DNA of 64,000 nucleotides from NCBI RefSeq assembly GCF_022984075.1, contig NZ_JALAAD010000001.1:2150455-2214454 (forward strand). The letters are read 5' to 3'. This document shows, one piece after another, positions 53,826 to 63,403 of the stretch; position 1 is the stretch's first letter; each line of letters begins with the position of its first letter. The translations under genes were made by a program, and so were the position numbers. The notes under the pieces are model-generated. The model saw only the letters and a program-made list of their open reading frames with translations, did no database searches and had not been told where the DNA came from. This DNA comes from Synechococcus sp. C9. Lineage in GTDB: Bacteria > Cyanobacteriota > Cyanobacteriia > Gloeomargaritales > Gloeomargaritaceae.

Positions 53826-53897
53826 GCCCGTGTAGCTCAGTGGTAGAGCACACCCTTGGTAAGGGTGAGGCCACGAGTTCAATCCTCGTCACGGGCT
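53826..53897 (+). tRNA. tRNA-Thr (anticodon GGT), integration target
   Basis: 72 bases. Acceptor GCCCGTG pairs with CACGGGC; anticodon loop TTGGTAA has GGT (reads ACC, and ACT by wobble); T arm CACGAGTTCAATCCTCGT. The 3' CCA is not encoded. From position 53850 onward its 3' half is part of a 53-base direct repeat whose second copy lies at 63351-63403, so this gene is the attachment site of the inserted element. The tRNA itself is intact. Confidence 0.95.
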
Positions 53898-53902
53898 TAC
53901 CG
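53850..53902. repeat. Attachment site copy at the left end (attL)
   Basis: 53 bases identical to 63351-63403. Begins ACACCCTTGGTAAGGGTGAG inside tRNA-Thr and extends 5 bases beyond its end (TACCG). Confidence 0.95.
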
Positions 53903-54040: not shown

Positions 54041-55195
54041 ATGGAGCTTATACAGGCGGGCGGTAAGGGCAAGGTAGCGATATACAACCGGGATGGTTTG
54101 TACTGGTTGCGGTGGAGCTACAAAGGCAAGCGGTACAGTCTAGCGGTGGGGCACTCGCAGGTAAAACCCACACGGGCATTGGCGGGACGGATAGAAATGG
54201 ATATGGCGGCGGGGCATTTTGACAGTAGCTTGGAATCCTACCGCCCAAAACAGGATCAAAAAGTGGATCAAACTTCTGATCCAGTTTTGGGAGTGCAGGA
54301 GTTATGGCAGATGTTTATGGATGCCCGTAGGCTTGCCGGTACAAGTGAGTTTTTTATAAACAACAGGTTTAAGAGCCTAGCCCGGAATCTAGCCCGGTGG
54401 GGCAAGGACATTACTTCAGAAGATACCGCCCGTGCGTTTATTGAATATCTGCGTAGCCGTCAGTCCCCCACGACTGCCAACGATAACCTACGGCACCTTA
54501 AATCTTTTGGCAGATGGGCTGTGGAGCAGGGGCACTGGCAAGCTAACCATTTTGAGAGACTGCAACACGCTAAGGTGCAGATTGCCCCGAAGCGTGATAA
54601 CCCGTTTACTGCTGATGAAGTGCGACTATTCCTACAAACCATTAAAACGGACGCTACATATTATAAGTATCACGACTTCTGCTATTGCCTATTCCACCTT
54701 GGTACCCGCCCATCAGAATTGATAGGACTGCGGTGGAGTGCCATAGATTTTACCCGTAGGCTGATTACCATAGCGGAATCCCTTAGCAGGGGTGATGATG
54801 GCAAGAGTGCTGGTTACGCTAGACAACGCAAGAGTACCAAAACCGGCAATGTACGAGTCCTACCCATGACTGAATCAGTTTATAGCCTGTTAACCGGGCG
54901 GTTTCAGGAATCACAACCTAAATCACCTGATGCGTTGGTGTTTACCAGTCCCACCGGGCGGGCGATTGATGATCACAATTTCAGTCAGCGGTGTTGGCGT
55001 AGCATTTGCCAGCGGGCGGGCATACCGTACAGGCCGCCATATATTGCCCGGCACACGGCACTTAGCCATATTGTGGAATCCACCGGCTCTCTAGCGCAGG
55101 CGGCGGCGGTGGCGGGGCATAGCTCCCTACGGATGGTGAGTCAAACCTACGGGCACCTGGTAAGCCGGGTGCAGATGCCCAGTTATGAAGGTTAG
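54041..55195 (+). CDS. int: Tyrosine-type site-specific integrase
   Basis: 384 residues. The N-terminal 50 residues (KVAIYNRDGLYWLRWSYKGKRYSLAVG) look like an arm-DNA-binding domain, followed by a core-binding SAM-like part. The catalytic domain has the first Arg in LGTRPSELIGLRW, then PYIARHTALSHIVE for the H-x-x-R box (here Y-I-A-R), AGHSSLRMVSQ (H/W) and the nucleophile Tyr in TYGHLVSR. The first His of the box is replaced by Tyr, which is known in some family members. It should catalyse integration into and excision from tRNA-Thr. It starts 143 bases after the tRNA. Confidence 0.93.
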   Translation: MELIQAGGKGKVAIYNRDGLYWLRWSYKGKRYSLAVGHSQVKPTRALAGRIEMDMAAGHFDSSLESYRPKQDQKVDQTSDPVLGVQELWQMFMDARRLAGTSEFFINNRFKSLARNLARWGKDITSEDTARAFIEYLRSRQSPTTANDNLRHLKSFGRWAVEQGHWQANHFERLQHAKVQIAPKRDNPFTADEVRLFLQTIKTDATYYKYHDFCYCLFHLGTRPSELIGLRWSAIDFTRRLITIAESLSRGDDGKSAGYARQRKSTKTGNVRVLPMTESVYSLLTGRFQESQPKSPDALVFTSPTGRAIDDHNFSQRCWRSICQRAGIPYRPPYIARHTALSHIVESTGSLAQAAAVAGHSSLRMVSQTYGHLVSRVQMPSYEG

Positions 55196-55200
55196 GGAAA

Positions 55201-56040
55201 ATGAATCAGATAACCGTCATTGGCTCCAACCCTAAATATGTGGACAAGGAAACCTATATTAGGGATGTTAATGTTTTTCTAAGAAACCACCCCTACTACC
55301 GGGCTGTACGGGTTATCAAAAATGAATTTAACCCGGATGAGGAAACAGTAGAGTATCTGTTTTCCTACCTGCTGGTGGACACCTTAAAAAATACTCAATA
55401 CCAGGGGAATTTGAGAGCAGAATTAGCTTACAAGTGCTTTCATCTATTGGTGCTTGAGTCATTGTGGCGGTCACTCATTTACCCTAAATTCAGGTTAGAT
55501 GATCCCGTTTTTAAGCAAAAATTACAACTGAATAAAAAAACTCGCACCATCCTGTCACCCCACGTCAATTTACAAGCTAATGCGTGTTTAAGTATGTGGA
55601 AAATGTTGGAGCGTTTACATTCCTTGGGGCGGGTTGGCTACGCTACAACGACGCTATTTCAACTGCTATGGCATGAGCCATCGGGACTTATGTTTCCCGA
55701 TTGCAATGCTTTTGATAACCTTAGCCATACCACGATCCGCAATTCGCAAAACGAAACCCAAAACTACCTGCGGAATATAGGGGGATTGTCTGTTTATAAG
55801 AAACAACACTGGGAGCAGGGGGAAAGCCTACCGCCGTTAAATCCATTCCAAGACTGGCCTGTATCAAATTTGATTCTAAAACTAGCAAGAAATGAAGCAA
55901 TAAACTCACCAGTGTTTAGAAAGGAATTTTATTGTCCCTTTGTAGATGCCCGCCACAAACTAATCCATTACTTGCAACATACCCAATTGATACTTTTGCA
56001 CCAATCCCCAAAAGGTGTAATGACAAAAGCTACACGCTAA
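55201..56040 (+). CDS. Unknown protein of the integrated element
   Basis: 279 residues, starts 5 bases after the integrase stop, so it is likely cotranscribed. Segments such as DVNVFLRNHPYYRAVRVIKNEFNPDEETVEYLFSYLLVDTL and NLQANACLSMWKMLERLHSLGRVGYATTTLFQLLW are predicted helical; no signal peptide, membrane segment or known motif seen. Its place between integrase and the small HTH gene is where cargo or defence genes are often found in satellite elements, but I have no direct evidence. No family recognised. Confidence 0.62.
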   Translation: MNQITVIGSNPKYVDKETYIRDVNVFLRNHPYYRAVRVIKNEFNPDEETVEYLFSYLLVDTLKNTQYQGNLRAELAYKCFHLLVLESLWRSLIYPKFRLDDPVFKQKLQLNKKTRTILSPHVNLQANACLSMWKMLERLHSLGRVGYATTTLFQLLWHEPSGLMFPDCNAFDNLSHTTIRNSQNETQNYLRNIGGLSVYKKQHWEQGESLPPLNPFQDWPVSNLILKLARNEAINSPVFRKEFYCPFVDARHKLIHYLQHTQLILLHQSPKGVMTKATR

Positions 56041-56158: not shown

Positions 56159-56380
56159 ATGCTGTTGAAAATCGAAGAAGCGGCGGAGCTTTGTCGGGTT
56201 TCCACTTGGTGTTTCAAGCGATGGGTTAGGGAGGGGCGGATACCGGCAACCGCCATCTTCAAACCATCCCGGCGGTGTGTGCGATACAGATCGGAAATCC
56301 TTGATAAATGGATTGCGGGGAAACTGGAATCCCCGGAGCCACGCAGGGTGGGGCGGCCCCGGAGGGAGCGCCATGAGTAA
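56159..56380 (+). CDS. AlpA/excisionase-type helix-turn-helix protein
   Basis: 73 residues. MLLKIEEAAELCRVSTWCFKRWVREGRIPATAIFKPSRRCVRYRSEILDKWI is a MerR-like winged HTH with the AAELCxVSxxxFxRWVREG recognition helix and a wing (SRRCVRYRSEILDKW). Such AlpA-like proteins regulate or assist excision of integrated elements. It stands after the integrase and one unknown, and a palindrome lies just upstream, so autoregulation is likely. The tail is Arg-rich. Confidence 0.82.
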   Translation: MLLKIEEAAELCRVSTWCFKRWVREGRIPATAIFKPSRRCVRYRSEILDKWIAGKLESPEPRRVGRPRRERHE

Positions 56381-56537
56381 CCCAAAAAAACAACCCCCGA
56401 CACCGTTGCCGGGGGGAATGTCAAAAAAACTTTCAATGATAAGGAGAGACTATCATGACAAGCTTAACCCATGCAAACAATGCGGTACACCATTTAGACA
56501 ATCGGCACCGACAAGAGTGGCTACAGTCGGCGGTTAG
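56373..56537 (+). CDS. Doubtful small gene between HTH and primase genes
   Basis: 54 residues beginning MSNPKKQPPTPLPGGMSKKLSMIRRD, with a CKQCGTPF pair of cysteines. It overlaps the HTH gene by 8 bases and the primase gene by 83 bases. A zinc-knuckle-like CxxC may be chance. The overlap with the well-started primase gene makes it uncertain. Confidence 0.25.
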   Translation: MSNPKKQPPTPLPGGMSKKLSMIRRDYHDKLNPCKQCGTPFRQSAPTRVATVGG

Positions 56538-58848
56538 CCCGGATGTAATTGATCTCAATGTTGAAACCCTAAGGGATGCCCAGGCGGTAGCCAAATTACT
56601 AAACCTGCCATTGGATGGGCTTCACGGATGGGGGGCAAAGGATTTAACACCGGGCTGGATAGCTTGGAGTGTCGATCCCCTGACGGGCAAACGGGACGGC
56701 TCATTCATTTACAAGCCCGACAAGGCACCCTTAGCCCTTGATGACGGCAAACCCAAGATTGGCACTGATGGCACTATCAAACGGTGCAAATACATCCAGC
56801 GCAGGGGGGCGGCTACAAAGCCCCTATTTCTACAAGCAGACTGGTTAAATTGGCCTGAGATTTTAGCTGATGAAAGCTACGATTTAGCACTCTGCGAAGG
56901 GGGCAAAAAAGCAGGCTCACTTATCAGTCAGTCTATCGCCGCCATTTCCATTCAGGGGATGTGGAATTCCCAGGTTAATTGGGAATTAAAACCCGAATTA
57001 AGGATATTTTGCCCAGGGCGGAATATCTATCTTTTCCCTGATGCTGATTGGCGGACTAATGCCAATGTCGCTCAGGGGTGGTTACGCACTGGAGCATTGC
57101 TCCAAGATGCGGGGGCAAACATCAAAGTTTGTGTCTGGGATTCAGCACTAGGTAAAGGCGTTGATGATGCCCTAGCTAATGGTGCCATCCTAGAAAAAAT
57201 CATGGGCAAGGCATTGGATTTATCCCAATGGGCAAAGCAGGTTAAAACAATCAAGACTGAAGCCCCAGAAGTTACACCGGAATTGGTGAATCAGGTATTA
57301 GCTGAATCTCAAGCTAGATTTGATGTTTATCAGCTAATTCCCACCGAATTGGCTAATGCAATCACCCGTAAAGCTAAAACCTTTGAATTACCCCCGGAAA
57401 CCCTGCTATCCGTATTTCTAGCGGTTGCCAGTAGCCTAATTCCCCATAAACTATCCTTGGGGGATGATTACACGATACCCGCCATTTTATGGTTAGGTTT
57501 GATGGGGGATAGTGGCACTGGAAAATCACCCGTAATCAACACCTTTACCAAGCCCCTAAGCAAGTTTCAAAGGGAAGCCTATGAGCGTTATGAATCGGCA
57601 ATGGAAGCCTATAGGCAAGCCTTAGGGGACAAGGAAATTGAAAATAAACCCTCCCCCCCTAATCGCAGGTTTTACTACCTTCAAGACTTCACCTGGGAAG
57701 CGATTAGCACAGCCCTAAAAGCCCGTAATCATTGCCTGATTTATTCAGATGAATTAGCAGGCTTTGTGCTAGGGCAAAATCAATATAAACAACGGGGCGG
57801 AAACGATAGGCAAAGATGGTTAACCGCCTATGATGGTGGGGCAATTGACGTTTTAAGGACTACCCGGAATTTGCATATTCCTGATGCAAGTCTCAGTGTT
57901 TTAGGGGGCATACAACCGTCAATACTGCAACAGTTAATAGGTAGGGATGGCTCAACGGTGGATGGATTTTGGGCACGGTTTTTATGGATTGAAATTCCCA
58001 GTCGCAAATTACCTTGTCCTATCGATGCCCCGGTCGTCAATCTGAGTGAGCTACTCGCAGGGGTTTATGAGCGCCTGGATCAACGGGCGGGGGTAAGTAG
58101 CACTTTCAGCCTGTGCCCCAGGGGAAAACGCTTATGGGCGCAATGGTGGGATGAAGTCGAAGCCCTTAAGGATTCAGAAGTAAACCCATTCCTAAAGGCA
58201 ATCTATCCCAAGATGATGGAGCGAGCCGGGCGGGTAGCCCTGGTTGCCCATTGTGTGAATAGTGCATTTAGGAATGATTGCCCAGGCGAAGTCATACCCC
58301 CGGAAACCTTGGAATGGGCAATCGCATTTATTAGGTGGACACTTCAACAATCCAGGCTGGTTTATGCCGATTGTGGACACTGCGAAAGCCCCGAAGCGCA
58401 ACGGATAGCCCGGTTTATCCAAAAATTCCAGGGCAAAACTGTTGACGGTAGGCGGGTGAATGCTTGGTGGACTGGTAATAAAAAACCCCTAGCCAAAGAA
58501 TGCCGCCAATGGCTTGCCGATCTGGTAGCCCTTGGTTATGCCGAAGTCATCTCCGGCACCCCCGATAAACCCGATTTTGCTGTAAGGATTCTAGGTGCAA
58601 AGGTGCATAATCCCCAGAAGTCGCATTATGACGGGGATACAAGCGCACCTACCCCAGGTGCATTTTTAGGTGCAAAGGTGCATTTGCCAAACCCCGATAC
58701 GAAAAATGCACCTAACGCACCTGTAGATGCACCTACCACAGGTGCGCCGGAAACCACGACTGGGAGCCAATTCCAGGGAAATGCACCTAATGCACCTGAT
58801 TTTATAGATTCCAATTCAGAGGGGGATGAGCAATGGGAGGACTTCTAA
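56455..58848 (+). CDS. Replication protein: Toprim-like N-terminus and DUF3987-type helicase
   Basis: 797 residues. The first 270 contain LALCEGGKKAGSLISQSIAAI and FPDADWRTNANVAQGW, similar to DUF3854/Toprim-type primase parts. From about residue 340 is a P-loop ATPase with GLMGDSGTGKSPVINTF (Walker A) and NHCLIYSDELAGFVLGQ (Walker B), then LSVLGGIQPSILQQLIGRDGS. This matches DUF3987, a helicase family of mobile elements and phages. The tail has Ala/Pro/Thr repeats. The ATG at 56455 has AAGGAGAG as ribosome site. The likely role is to start replication of the excised element, perhaps at the repeat array at 60.4-60.7 kb. Confidence 0.84.
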   Translation: MTSLTHANNAVHHLDNRHRQEWLQSAVSPDVIDLNVETLRDAQAVAKLLNLPLDGLHGWGAKDLTPGWIAWSVDPLTGKRDGSFIYKPDKAPLALDDGKPKIGTDGTIKRCKYIQRRGAATKPLFLQADWLNWPEILADESYDLALCEGGKKAGSLISQSIAAISIQGMWNSQVNWELKPELRIFCPGRNIYLFPDADWRTNANVAQGWLRTGALLQDAGANIKVCVWDSALGKGVDDALANGAILEKIMGKALDLSQWAKQVKTIKTEAPEVTPELVNQVLAESQARFDVYQLIPTELANAITRKAKTFELPPETLLSVFLAVASSLIPHKLSLGDDYTIPAILWLGLMGDSGTGKSPVINTFTKPLSKFQREAYERYESAMEAYRQALGDKEIENKPSPPNRRFYYLQDFTWEAISTALKARNHCLIYSDELAGFVLGQNQYKQRGGNDRQRWLTAYDGGAIDVLRTTRNLHIPDASLSVLGGIQPSILQQLIGRDGSTVDGFWARFLWIEIPSRKLPCPIDAPVVNLSELLAGVYERLDQRAGVSSTFSLCPRGKRLWAQWWDEVEALKDSEVNPFLKAIYPKMMERAGRVALVAHCVNSAFRNDCPGEVIPPETLEWAIAFIRWTLQQSRLVYADCGHCESPEAQRIARFIQKFQGKTVDGRRVNAWWTGNKKPLAKECRQWLADLVALGYAEVISGTPDKPDFAVRILGAKVHNPQKSHYDGDTSAPTPGAFLGAKVHLPNPDTKNAPNAPVDAPTTGAPETTTGSQFQGNAPNAPDFIDSNSEGDEQWEDF

Positions 58849-59543
58849 CCGCCCCGAAGGTGGGGGAATGCTATGCCGGGGGGATTGTCACTCGCAGGCA
58901 ACGGACACCCCAGGGGCAAGTACGGCTATTGGTTAATGGGCAATGGATAACCTTTGAGCCATCCCCGCCATTGGATAGATTCAAACCGGGGGACAAAATC
59001 AGATTGATTAACCCCACCTGCTGGGAGTGGCAACGGTGGCCGGGGGGCGTTACTGCCAAGGTTGTGGACGTGTTGGATGGGGGTGCAAGGCTAAGAATAA
59101 GCACCCCCGAAAGTGAGCGGGGCGGGTTTTATTACGGTGTGGACAGTGAAAACTGGGAATTAGTAGAGACACCTGCACCACCACCGGCACCCCCGCCGCC
59201 GCCACCACCGCTGGTAATCTCTGAGCCGGATGCGCCTACTACAGGTACACCGGAAACCCCTGTCCCCCATACTCCGAAACAAATTAATCAGGTGAGTTTG
59301 CAGGTCGGGGACTGGGTGCGATACCGGGGGAGCTATCAATCGTTGCGGGTGCAGTGCGAGCATTCCCGCCGGGACGGTGTGAGGATAACCGCCATTGATG
59401 GGGATATGGCAACCATCAAAGCCAAAAAATGGATTTATGGTTATACGGTGCCGATTGCCGAATTGGTTTTAGAGCGCAGGGGAAACCCACCGGCAAAAAC
59501 TATTAGCGCAGTTGGGGGAAATGATGATGACACCCCGTTTTAG
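58833..59543 (+). CDS. Two-domain protein with Pro linker, unknown
   Basis: 236 residues, overlapping the end of the helicase gene by 16 bases. Residues 8-108 and 152-222 are both rich in beta strands (GECYAGGIVTRRQRTPQGQVRLLVNG, and VGDWVRYRGSYQSLRVQCEHSRRDGVRITAIDG), each like a small SH3/KOW-type barrel. They are joined by a run of Pro and a DAPTTGTPETP segment also found at the end of the helicase (DAPTTGAPET). No enzyme motif. Possibly a DNA- or RNA-binding accessory protein. Confidence 0.68.
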   Translation: MGGLLTAPKVGECYAGGIVTRRQRTPQGQVRLLVNGQWITFEPSPPLDRFKPGDKIRLINPTCWEWQRWPGGVTAKVVDVLDGGARLRISTPESERGGFYYGVDSENWELVETPAPPPAPPPPPPPLVISEPDAPTTGTPETPVPHTPKQINQVSLQVGDWVRYRGSYQSLRVQCEHSRRDGVRITAIDGDMATIKAKKWIYGYTVPIAELVLERRGNPPAKTISAVGGNDDDTPF

Positions 59544-59772: not shown

Positions 59773-60388
59773 CACCATCTGGGGGCATCATTCCCGGTGC
59801 CCCCTCCCCTGCTGATGAGAATCCACATTCTAAAAAGTGAATCGCAAATTAGGGTGAGCCTAGTCCCCCATCGCCGCCCGGCCACCGCACCCCCAGTAAA
59901 CAAAAATCAGTACCTTGGTGTGTTGCGTACTCACCCACCCGTGTACGCAAAATTTAAGCCAATTTTGTACTAACAGTCCCCGTAAAATCCCCAGCAATGC
60001 CCCCACGAGCAACCGCCCGTATGATTCTATCTGTAGGTGGGGGAAACTCGCTGTAGGGCATTCTAGCGGGCAATCAGATAAAACTAGCCCAAAAACCAAG
60101 GCATACCTTTGGCAATCCGATATATTCAACATTGATATACATAAGTTGTACTAATCAATGGCTGTAACTAACAATGTATTTACTCGCAAGGTTACGTTAT
60201 TACAATGCTTACGCCGGAATAAATCGTTAATGCACCTTCCAAGCGTACTGCAATCGGAGCGGGGAAACTGATTGCCAGTCCAACAGTTTATGACAATCCC
60301 CCGACTATATCAGTTTGATACACCTTTTAGGCACCGGGTGGTGGTGGGGATAGGCGGCAAGTAATGGCGGTTGCGGTTGCACCAAAGG
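59773..60388. other. 616-base stretch without a clear gene; nested inverted repeats
   Basis: Starts the long non-coding zone of the element. TTGCGTAC at 59923-59930 and GTACGCAA at 59943-59950 are perfect inverted 8-mers with a 12-base loop. The second overlaps a further inverted pair, AAAATT and AATTTT (59949-59966) with flanking GTAC. A short reading (59860-60132, minus strand) shows no features of a gene. Upstream of the hairpin array, GGCACC and GGCGGCAA motifs begin near 60330. Confidence 0.5.
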
Positions 60389-60660
60389 CACCACATTACA
60401 CCGTCGTGTAAAATGGTGAAACCCCGTCTGGGAGGGCTTTTCAGGGTTGATCCTGAAAAATCACCACGTTACCCCGTCGGGTAATCTGGTGAAACGCCGT
60501 CTGGGAGGGGGATAGGCGGCAATCCATCCCCCCAGTGAATGCACCATTTTATCTCTAGAGTCAAGGTGGTGAAACGCCGTCAGGGTGGGGGTTAGCGGCA
60601 ATCAATATGCCACCATCTTATCCGTAGAGATAATGTGGCGAAAACGCATCAGGGCGGGTA
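60389..60660. repeat. Four-unit hairpin-repeat array, candidate replication origin or regulatory region
   Basis: Four imperfect units begin at 60389, 60462, 60542 and 60611, 69-80 bases apart. Each has CACCA, then a short inner stem (TTACAC CGTC GTGTAA in unit 1, TTACCC CGTC GGGTAA in unit 2, weaker in 3, TTATC/GATAA in 4), then TGGTGAAAC(C/G)CCGTC(T/A)GGG and, in three units, a trailing TA(G)GCGGCAATC. CACCA and TGGTG flank the stem as outer inverted arms. Stem bases change on both sides in step. A separate perfect stem TTTTCAGG/CCTGAAAA (60438-60459) lies between units 1 and 2. GGCACCA repeats follow at 60687-60740. Confidence 0.78.
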
Positions 60661-60757
60661 TTAGCGGCAATCGATCCACCTTAGCTGGCACCAGGCACCA
60701 AAGGCACCAAGGGGAATTCCCACCTGGCAGGGGCACCAGGCGGGGGATATAGGCGGG

Positions 60758-61523: not shown

Positions 61524-61709
61524 TTACCAATCGTGTCCTAGTGCTTCCAACTCTTCCCAGGTTTCAACACCCCAGGCGGACAGCATTTCCTCACGGCGCA
61601 TATCCTCTTGGGCGCATTGCAAGTCGTACTCCTGATCCGGGGTTAATATGGCTTCGCCACGCAAGCTATCGGTAGTGCCGTCAACAATCAAATCAGATTC
61701 AAATTCCAT
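61524..61709 (-). CDS. Small acidic unknown protein containing a dispersed-repeat segment
   Basis: 61 residues, MEFESDLIVDGTTDSLRGEAIL...QEDMRREEMLSAWGVETWEELEALGHDW, acidic. The ATG at 61709 has GGAGG six bases before. The DNA at 61650-61675 (TGGCTTCGCCACGCAAGCTA) resembles a segment common in the dispersed repeats (for example TGCCTACGGCACGCAAGCTA at 22151), so repeat sequence seems built into the coding region without breaking it. Function unknown. Confidence 0.55.
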   Translation of the reverse strand: MEFESDLIVDGTTDSLRGEAILTPDQEYDLQCAQEDMRREEMLSAWGVETWEELEALGHDW

Positions 61710-61722
61710 TGCAATCCTCCTA

Positions 61723-61845
61723 TTACCATTCAAAACGTTGGATAATTTGCCGCCAATCAGTAGCGGGTTGTTGTTGTGGCTTAGGCATGGGGGTTTTGGA
61801 TTCCTGTGCCGGTTGCGTTTTCTTAGTCCGTTTTGTGGTTGCCAT
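61723..61845 (-). CDS. Very small basic protein of the leftward operon
   Basis: 40 residues, MATTKRTKKTQPAQESKTPM, then KPQQQPATDWRQII and QRFEW. The ATG at 61845 follows AGGAGATTCACC. Its stop lies 13 bases before the ATG of the next gene, with that gene's ribosome site in between. Lysine-rich start, no known family. Accepted because spacing and ribosome site fit the operon. Confidence 0.5.
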   Translation of the reverse strand: MATTKRTKKTQPAQESKTPMPKPQQQPATDWRQIIQRFEW

Positions 61846-61901: not shown

Positions 61902-62384
61902 TTAGGCGTAGTAGGCGTGGTCTTGCGGGTATTCTTTGACGCCGAATTGCTCAGGCTGACGGCGTTTCCGGGGTTTGGGAGCAGGGGAAACCGGGGTGGG
62001 GTTATTAACGGTTTCTTTTTGCCGTTTCTTGTCAAGCCGGATAAACAAATCCACCAAGTCGGCGGTGGGGCGGTGGATTTTGATTTCCCACTTGTAAATA
62101 TCGGAAGGGAAATACTCGCTAGGGCGGGGCAAATTGATACCGCTATCCGACTGGTGGCGGTAGCGGGTGACTTTGCCCTTTTCTAGCAGGTAATTAAAGG
62201 TTTCCATTGCCGCTTCCACTGTCTCAAATGCGAGATACAGGAAAAACTTGGAAGCCGGGGGATAAAACCCTAACCGCACACGGGGGGCACCCACCGGGGC
62301 ACTGATAACCAAACCGCCCTTATCATGAAGCACCTTCTCAATCTTGGAGCGGTGCCCTTGGGGTTGTGTCGCAGTTGTAGTCAT
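61902..62384 (-). CDS. Unknown protein of the leftward operon
   Basis: 160 residues, MTTTATQPQGHRSKIEKVLHDKGGLVISAPV...VRLGFYPPASKFFLYLAFETVEAAMETFNYLLEKGKVTRYRHQ..., with a basic Pro-rich end (APKPRKRRQPEQFGVKE). GGAGG lies before the ATG at 62384. Alternating strands and helices suggest a compact alpha/beta domain. No family recognised. Confidence 0.6.
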   Translation of the reverse strand: MTTTATQPQGHRSKIEKVLHDKGGLVISAPVGAPRVRLGFYPPASKFFLYLAFETVEAAMETFNYLLEKGKVTRYRHQSDSGINLPRPSEYFPSDIYKWEIKIHRPTADLVDLFIRLDKKRQKETVNNPTPVSPAPKPRKRRQPEQFGVKEYPQDHAYYA

Positions 62385-62446
62385 GGGAAAATACCTCCAA
62401 AGAAATGTTTGTGAATTGCCCCGGAATTTCACCGGGGCTGTTTTGT

Positions 62447-62861: not shown

Positions 62862-62870
62862 AGGATGAGT

Positions 62871-63278
62871 ATGCCTAACCCGTCACCCCGTCAAACTGAA
62901 GAATTTAAGAAACACTGCTACCAGCCCAAAGGTGCTGTATACAGTGATTATCCTTTAGCAGATAAGCCTACGCAGGTGCGGTTAGCAGAGGATATTACGG
63001 CGGCGGTGGATGCGCTGGGCAACGACAAGACACCTTGGCTACGGCGGGTGATCACTGAAGCAGTCCGTAAGGAATTACTAAGCCAAGCACAGGGGACTGT
63101 ATCAGCAAACGAAGTGCCATCCCCACCACCGGCTAGTCCCCCCTTGGATGCAGATACCTTGGTGAAGGTGTTGAATGAAGTCTTAGCGGTACCACGACTG
63201 CCAGCGGCGGCTAAGAAAAAACTGGAAACCCTGCTAGAAACATTGAGCCAATCCCAGGGGCATTTACCGCTAGGCTAA
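62871..63278 (+). CDS. Ribbon-helix-helix type regulator at the right end of the element
   Basis: 135 residues. YSDYPLADKPTQVRLAEDITAAVDALGNDKTPWLRRVITEAVRKELL is a strand-helix-helix pattern of RHH DNA-binding proteins, with a TQVRLAEDI strand. The C-terminal part is a Pro-rich linker and a helix (LDADTLVKVLNEVLAVPRLPAAAKKKLETLLETL). The ATG at 62871 follows AGGATGAG; an ATG at 62865 is a possible start with a worse ribosome site. The upstream GTATACAGCG operators, also seen once inside this gene (62937), suggest autoregulation and control of the divergent operon. Confidence 0.7.
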   Translation: MPNPSPRQTEEFKKHCYQPKGAVYSDYPLADKPTQVRLAEDITAAVDALGNDKTPWLRRVITEAVRKELLSQAQGTVSANEVPSPPPASPPLDADTLVKVLNEVLAVPRLPAAAKKKLETLLETLSQSQGHLPLG

Positions 63279-63350: not shown

Positions 63351-63403
63351 ACACCCTTGGTAAGGGTGAGGCCACGAGTTCAATCCTCGTCACGGGCTTA
63401 CCG
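63351..63403. repeat. Attachment site copy at the right end (attR)
   Basis: 53 bases identical to 53850-53902. It is the 3' half of tRNA-Thr without the 5' half, so it is not a functional tRNA gene. The following 80 bases resemble the sequence after attL. Confidence 0.95.

What the first reader, a model, noticed from the sequence alone, without database searches (positions are those of the whole stretch)
55201..56040. Unrecognised 279-residue protein directly behind the integrase
It is cotranscribed with the integrase (5-base gap), has clean coding sequence and no known motif. This is a typical position for accessory or defence genes in integrated elements.
Basis: inference. Interest (0 to 1): 0.5.

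Follow-up and report, generated by a model that had tools for sequence, protein, structure and literature searches.

The report
Replication-module protein behind an integrase
The unrecognised gene behind the integrase belongs to a family of mostly basic proteins that sits just upstream of the DNA-copying gene in a number of cyanobacterial mobile elements and small plasmids, so it is more likely part of the element's own replication and excision control than a defence gene.

Summary
The 279-aa ORF is real and lies 5 bases behind a tyrosine integrase, inside a 9.5-kb element in a tRNA-Thr gene (53-bp exact repeat at 53850-53902 and 63351-63403). No Pfam, PHROG, NCBIfam or PADLOC family matches it; best PDB match E=0.26. 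Iterated profiles found a divergent family, here X, in 31 other genomes of the phylum and on four small cyanobacterial plasmids. In 33 of 33 loci with at least 2.5 kb downstream, a same-strand ORF of 450 aa or more starts within 2 kb (control genes 34 of 88); at least 15 of these carry DUF3987 or DUF3854, others Prim-Pol, D5, VapE or helicase domains. An integrase lies within 600 nt upstream in 11 of 37. Once X is fused to the excisionase-type HTH protein. X lineages and replicases recombine independently. 'Defence' is unsupported; 'accessory' holds, as replication/excision control. Closest functional precedent: PICMI gene iolg (PMC10803314), same position, needed for excision. The mechanism is inferred; a single-sequence fold failed.

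The parts
53850..53902 (.). left attachment repeat (3' part of tRNA-Thr 53826-53897 plus 5 bases)
   Evidence: 53-bp exact direct repeat with 63351-63403; tRNA by ARAGORN and Rfam
54041..55195 (+). tyrosine integrase, 384 aa
   Evidence: PF00589 9e-21, phrog_1 2.2e-47
55201..56040 (+). protein X, 279 aa (the finding); pI 9.4
   Evidence: family alignment A5
56159..56380 (+). excisionase/AlpA-type HTH protein, 73 aa
   Evidence: PF12728 39.4 bits (cut-off 27), phrog_66 2e-8
56455..58848 (+). replication primase-helicase, DUF3854 + DUF3987, 797 aa
   Evidence: PF13148 6.4e-49, PF12965 6.1e-20
58833..59543 (+). uncharacterised 236-aa ORF overlapping the end of the replicase gene
60384..60676 (.). 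four imperfect repeats spaced 69-80 bp, each able to form a hairpin; candidate origin (inference)
   Evidence: no other copy in own genome at E<=0.001
61524..61733 (-). 69-aa element gene shared with the element of G239 (36% over 59 aa)
61902..62432 (-). 176-aa element gene shared with the element of G239 (57% over 157 aa)
62865..63278 (+). 137-aa element gene shared with the element of G239 (38% over 139 aa)
63351..63403 (.). right attachment repeat

Best explanation
X is a core protein of the replication/excision module of cyanobacterial mobile replicons rather than cargo. SHOWN by sequence: it belongs to a divergent, mostly basic protein family encoded just upstream of a large ORF that is, where recognised, a replication primase/helicase. 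In chromosomal elements with the window's type of integrase it is sandwiched as int - X - HTH (excisionase/AlpA-type) - rep; once it is fused to that HTH. INFERRED: X binds DNA in the control region next to rep (and perhaps the attachment sites) together with the HTH protein, and sets when the excised or plasmid form starts to replicate (copy/initiation control coupled to excision). It is not tied to one replicase: one X lineage is found beside unrelated replicases, and near-identical replicases can carry very different X. It behaves like a specificity factor for its own DNA sites.
For: 33 of 33 loci with >=2.5 kb downstream have a same-strand ORF >=450 aa starting -1 to 1969 nt after X, against 34 of 88 control genes. 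Domains in those 33 proteins: DUF3987 in 9, DUF3854 in 8, DEAD 5, ResIII 4, Prim-Pol 4, D5_N 3, VapE-like 2, DNA pol A 1 (overlapping tallies); by place at least 15 of 33 carry DUF3987 or DUF3854. In 23 X-bearing genomes 8 of 16 DUF3987 proteins lie just behind X. Four small plasmids carry X before a large ORF annotated CyRepA1, DUF3987, DEAD/DEAH helicase or hypothetical (CyRepA1 confirmed). Int-X-HTH-rep in WIN, L122, L123, L129, L130, L131, L144, and with X and HTH fused in L147. pI >8.5 in 30 of 33. L123/L130: X 58% identical, replicases no blastp match; L141/L142: replicase 80%, X 23%; L130/L131: int 98%, HTH 98%, X 62%, dS 0.51 versus 0.07 and 0.10.
Against: No structure, no DNA-binding motif found by any library, no experiment. 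No common iterons between X and rep: excess direct repeats in 4, inverted in 5 of 31 regions. Only 8 of 137 DUF3854 matches in 32 X-bearing genomes have X just upstream (counted by hand), so X is an optional partner. X is not always the fast gene: in L146/L148 X is 93% and the replicase 88% identical. The control is conservative but coarse, and the large ORF of L122 runs through withheld bases (244 of its residues), so 32 of 32 without it. How many of the 33 downstream proteins carry no replication domain is not known. An integrase is directly upstream in 11 of 37 loci, and all four plasmids carry a tyrosine recombinase elsewhere, which also suits a recombination role. Homology of the most divergent members rests on profile scores (down to 3.4e-4) plus context; L154 links to no other member by blastp at 1e-3.
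Confidence: 0.5

Rival explanations
1. Excision cofactor (IOLG-like): X joins the integrase and the HTH protein in the excision complex, as proposed for the integrase-overlapping gene iolg of the Vibrio satellite PICMI115.
For: Same position between int and an HTH_17 gene with a DUF3987 primase downstream; iolg is needed for excision of PICMI115, and iolg/icg genes fall into 13 families of unknown function (PMC10803314, passages). X:HTH fusion. Of 9 X loci with the window's type of integrase, all 8 not cut by a contig end have the HTH next to or fused to X. All 4 plasmids carry a tyrosine recombinase somewhere.
Against: 26 of 37 X loci have no integrase within 600 nt upstream (some regions are contig-limited). 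The integrase family mostly does without X: of 30 integrase loci (1.5-kb flanks) only the window's and one G239 copy have X. No sequence comparison with IOLG proteins was possible.
Confidence: 0.22
2. Replication initiation factor proper: X binds the origin or loads the helicase for the downstream replicase.
For: Constant adjacency to primase/helicase-type genes; a replicase patch (L130 8400-9150) is divergent together with X in L130/L131.
Against: One X lineage is found beside replicases with no detectable similarity (L123/L130), and most DUF3854 replicases lack X. CyRepA1 and CyRepA2 plasmids replicate with rep and its flanking or regulatory region only (PMC10079941, PMC10899382, passages).
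Confidence: 0.15
3. Defence, counter-defence or superinfection-immunity gene placed in the early operon; allele turnover reflects an arms race.
For: Strong local divergence of X between otherwise near-identical elements; operon position; other copies of this integrase family are followed by what look like HicA/HicB and BrnT genes (names recalled, not tested).
Against: No PADLOC match for X, two DpdC models with one weak member match each among 35. Constant linkage to rep is not a cargo pattern. Fusion to the HTH points to DNA transactions.
Confidence: 0.1
4. HEPN-type RNase/abortive toxin, from the motif R-x4-H (RHKLIH) near the C terminus.
For: The motif is present in the window protein (motif recalled).
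Against: The arginine is kept but the histidine is absent in the five other proteins of alignment A3 (RSKFVN, RERLTA, RKALTA, RMELVT, RQKFTA); Pfam finds no HEPN in the window protein.
Confidence: 0.02

Closest known systems
iolg/icg of phage-inducible chromosomal minimalist islands (PICMI, Vibrionaceae; PMC10803314, passages)
   Same: Gene of unknown function behind or overlapping int, before an AlpA/HTH_17 gene and a DUF3987/DUF5906 primase; small element.
   Different: Other bacterial group and att site (tRNA-Thr, not fis); 9.5 kb versus 6.1 kb; sequence relation to any of the 13 iolg/icg families not tested; X also occurs on plasmids without an adjacent integrase; no helper phage known; capsid genes were looked for only among the five window proteins given to PHROGs (none).
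CyRepA replicons of cyanobacteria (PMC10079941, PMC10899382, PMC9978351, passages)
   Same: The window's replicase has the DUF3854 domain described for CyRepA; X precedes a CyRepA1 on plasmid pSYN7502.02.
   Different: The window replicase does not match the NCBIfam CyRepA1 model and has DUF3987 where CyRepA has a DEXDc domain; the passages seen do not mention X; in pSYSA the gene before rep is the 64-aa ssr7036.
Excisionase/AlpA-type HTH proteins (PF12728)
   Same: Fused to X in L147 and encoded behind X in seven other loci.
   Different: X itself has no HTH_17 match.

Membership tests
PICMI satellite (element as a whole) | integrase PF00589 | tested here: met
PICMI satellite (element as a whole) | AlpA gene, PF05930 or PF12728 | tested here: met
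   PF12728, 39.4 bits
PICMI satellite (element as a whole) | primase with DUF3987 (PF13148) or DUF5906 | tested here: met
   PF13148 6.4e-49
PICMI satellite (element as a whole) | insertion at the fis gene (optional in one model of the paper, mandatory in another) | tested here: not met
   attachment repeat is the tRNA-Thr 3' part; therefore not filed as a PICMI
PICMI satellite (element as a whole) | packaging by a helper phage | not testable with these tools
   needs infection experiments
IOLG/ICG protein | gene overlaps or adjoins int, before alpA | tested here: met
   5-nt gap in the window; in L147 a 4-nt overlap with a TTG start or a 14-nt gap with the next ATG
IOLG/ICG protein | sequence similarity to one of the 13 iolg/icg families | not tested
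   those sequences were not held
IOLG/ICG protein | needed for excision | not testable with these tools
   deletion experiment needed
CyRepA1 (for the neighbouring replicase) | match to NF042913 | tested here: not met
   0 families for window:56455-58845; the pSYN7502.02 neighbour of X matches at 2.5e-106
HEPN ribonuclease | conserved R-x4-6-H | tested here: not met
   His absent in the five relatives of A3
Known anti-phage defence protein | match in PADLOC-DB | tested here: not met
   0 families for X; two DpdC models with one member each of 35, best 0.015

The most novel reading that the evidence does not exclude
X is the specificity (incompatibility/immunity) determinant of a class of cyanobacterial replicons: a portable DNA-binding module placed in front of interchangeable primase/helicase genes, exchanged as alleles by recombination between otherwise near-identical elements so that related plasmids and integrated elements can coexist or exclude one another, and coupled through the HTH partner to excision. 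(Probability lowered from 0.25 to 0.22 on checking, because in one close pair, L146/L148, X is the more conserved gene.)
Probability: 0.22. Interest if true: 0.7.

Novelty: new variant of a known kind. Interest (0 to 1): 0.48.

Why it matters
It defines a protein family without a consistent match in the libraries searched here (Pfam, PHROGs, NCBIfam, PADLOC, PDB) that links integrase, excisionase-type protein and replicase in cyanobacterial mobile elements and plasmids. It gives testable candidates for copy control, compatibility and excision, and offers a cyanobacterial counterpart to the unexplained iolg genes of phage satellites.

Tried and rejected
HEPN/Abi reading (R-x4-H): rejected, histidine not conserved. 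Window protein alone in genome contigs, viral contigs, plasmids and phages: nothing. Two-row profile in genome contigs and viral contigs: nothing; relatives and sub-alignments in viral contigs: nothing. tblastn of relatives: phages nothing; plasmids only cyanobacterial records; fusion protein nothing; window replicase in phages nothing at 1e-10. Library scans of the 35-member family gave only scattered matches (Imm9 0.0011, one member; phrog_25101 0.0045, two members; phrog_34914 0.0037, one member; TIGR04379 0.0039, one member). PDB profile searches: best E 0.62 and 1.3. AlphaFold2 on the window protein alone: mean pLDDT 34.8, helices only, not used; no fold search was run. Common iterons between X and rep: not found. 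The 313-aa ORF behind the integrase of G391 is not an X by profile (-2.0 bits). Rows dropped before counting: L099, L100 (partial hits in frames above 1300 aa), L102 (166-aa partial hit), L133 (same record as L119); sub-threshold hits were not used unless the gene context supported them, and not every one was inspected. X versus replicase similarity: Spearman 0.14 over 528 non-independent pairs. Literature: accession/locus-tag search 0 papers; Gloeomargarita + integrase 0; some searches were seen as listings; passages only were read from PMC10079941, PMC10899382, PMC9978351, PMC10803314 and PMC5862659. No paper was read whole.

Full report
Observation. The ORF at 55201-56040 (+) is as described: ATG start, 279 aa, five bases after the stop of a 384-aa tyrosine integrase. 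It is not a chance frame: 0 of 2000 single-base shuffles stay open, and relatives keep the gene in the same order. Nothing in Pfam, PHROGs, PADLOC or NCBIfam matches at E<=10, and the one PDB match is E=0.26.

Setting. The integrase lies next to tRNA-Thr (53826-53897). The 3' part of that tRNA plus 5 bases, 53 bp in all, is repeated exactly at 63351-63403, which marks a 9.5-kb integrated element. Gene order on the + strand is int, X, a 73-aa HTH_17/excisionase-type protein, a 797-aa primase-helicase with DUF3854 and DUF3987, and a 236-aa ORF; smaller ORFs follow on both strands, three of which have relatives in the G239 element. The host is taken to be a cyanobacterium because all four plasmid records with X are Cyanobacteriota; the genome itself is unnamed.

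Finding the family. The window protein alone found nothing in four collections. In 386 genomes of the phylum the clearest relative is in one same-genus genome, G239: 27% identical, again directly behind an integrase (70% identical to ours) and before an HTH protein. That copy has one in-frame stop. A two-row profile gave weak matches, several of which proved real by context: ORFs of 226-283 aa near integrase, HTH, primase or helicase genes. Further rounds gave 8 clear genomes of 386 (6 of them built the profile), 17 of 192 in one family (2 later dropped as doubtful) and 15 of 143 relatives of another genome; the sets overlap, and the loci kept come from 31 genomes besides the window's. tblastn with relatives added four small plasmids, of Synechococcus PCC 7502, Geminocystis NIES-3708, Nostoc N6 and Fischerella NIES-4106; the Nostoc one is the same record as one genome locus. 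Within a set of 33, 32 members link into one blastp cluster at E<=1e-3; L154 does not. Library scans of 35 members gave only scattered weak matches.

What X is attached to. I examined 37 loci with wide flanks. All 33 with at least 2.5 kb behind X have an ORF of 450 aa or more on the same strand starting between -1 and 1969 nt after X; the other four end at a contig edge within 84-2044 nt. One of the 33 (L122) runs through withheld bases, so 32 of 32 without it. Among other genes of 200 aa or more in the same regions the figure is 34 of 88 (integrases lying before X count as hits there, which makes the control conservative). A Pfam tally of the 33 proteins shows replication domains of unrelated types: DUF3987 in 9, DUF3854 in 8, DEAD in 5, ResIII in 4, Prim-Pol in 4, D5_N in 3, VapE-like in 2, DNA polymerase A in 1. 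The tallies overlap and the number without any such domain is unknown; by place, at least 15 carry DUF3987 or DUF3854. In 23 X-bearing genomes 8 of 16 DUF3987 proteins lie just behind X, but only 8 of 137 DUF3854 matches in 32 such genomes do (both counted by hand). X is thus an optional companion, more often of DUF3987 replicases.

Integrase. A tyrosine recombinase lies within 600 nt upstream in 11 of 37 loci and somewhere in the stretch examined in 16 of 37, including all four plasmids. Conversely, of 30 integrase loci related to ours (1.5-kb flanks), only the window's and one G239 copy have X. So X follows the replicase more than the integrase. Eight scanned int-X loci (window, L002, L123, L129, L130, L131, L144, L147) lie beside a tRNA gene: Thr, Arg, four Gly, Arg, Thr.

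Link to the excisionase-type protein. Seven loci (window, L122, L123, L129, L130, L131, L144) have int-X-HTH-rep. In L147 the HTH is fused to the C terminus of X in one 396-aa protein; its HTH part is 52-57% identical to the separate HTH proteins of five loci and 28% to that of the window. With its first possible start (TTG) this ORF overlaps int by 4 nt, with the next ATG the gap is 14 nt; rep overlaps its end by 1 nt. This argues for joint action of X and the HTH protein.

Evolution. Two elements from one family of genomes (L130/L131) have integrases and HTH proteins 98% identical, but X 62% (dS 0.51 against 0.07 and 0.10), plus a second divergent patch inside rep. This looks like allele replacement. 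In L141/L142 the replicases are 80% identical and X 23%; in L123/L130 X is 58% identical and the replicases give no blastp match. Against a general rule, in L146/L148 X is 93% and the replicase 88% identical. The window and G239 elements share int, HTH, X and three small genes, but no DUF3854 was found in G239 (parts of that genome are withheld), so the replicase was probably exchanged. X therefore moves and diverges independently of any one replicase.

Mechanism. The family is mostly basic (pI >8.5 in 30 of 33), precedes rep, and is once fused to a DNA-binding HTH. The simplest reading is a DNA-binding control protein of the replication/excision module with its own site specificity. Binding sites are not identified: no common iterons were found. 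The strongest precedent for the position is iolg of the Vibrio satellite PICMI115, which lies between int and alpA and is needed for excision (PMC10803314, passages). The window element meets the int, HTH_17 and DUF3987 criteria of that model but not the fis site, so it is PICMI-like in layout, not filed as a PICMI. CyRepA papers (PMC10079941, PMC10899382, PMC9978351; passages) show that DUF3854 proteins are plasmid replicases; the passages seen do not mention X.

Limits. The fold of X is unknown: AlphaFold2 on the single sequence gave pLDDT 34.8. Everything about function is inference from gene order, fusion, charge and divergence.

Noticed in passing
window 60384-60676: Four imperfect repeats spaced 69-80 bp whose stem bases change in a compensating way (TTACAC/GTGTAA, TTACCC/GGGTAA), in the gap between rightward and leftward genes; DNA fold z -2.59; no other copy in the genome; candidate replication origin of the element.
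   Followed up: partly
L007 1172-2993: G239 carries a second copy of this integrase (71% identical) beside the same tRNA-Tyr/tRNA-Thr pair as in the window, followed by what look like HicA and HicB genes instead of X (names recalled, not tested).
   Followed up: partly
L008 2675-2959: In G391 the integrase lies beside tRNA-Ala and is followed by a BrnT-like toxin ORF (name recalled, not tested).
   Followed up: no
L156 4485-5426: A different 313-aa ORF with CxxC pairs lies directly behind the integrase in G391, before an excisionase-like ORF seen in L035; not an X by profile.
   Followed up: partly
L119 (Nostoc pNPM10, NZ_CP026683.1): X sits on a linear 21.9-kb plasmid annotated with a protelomerase, so X may also occur in phage-plasmid-like replicons.
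   Followed up: no
L122 9790-10590: The G239 copy of X has one in-frame TAG and may be a pseudogene; its element lies beside tRNA-Arg, not tRNA-Thr.
   Followed up: partly
G000:C2:42227-42574: The window's own genome has a second DUF3854 protein on contig C2, while the genome-wide search found only the one X.
   Followed up: no
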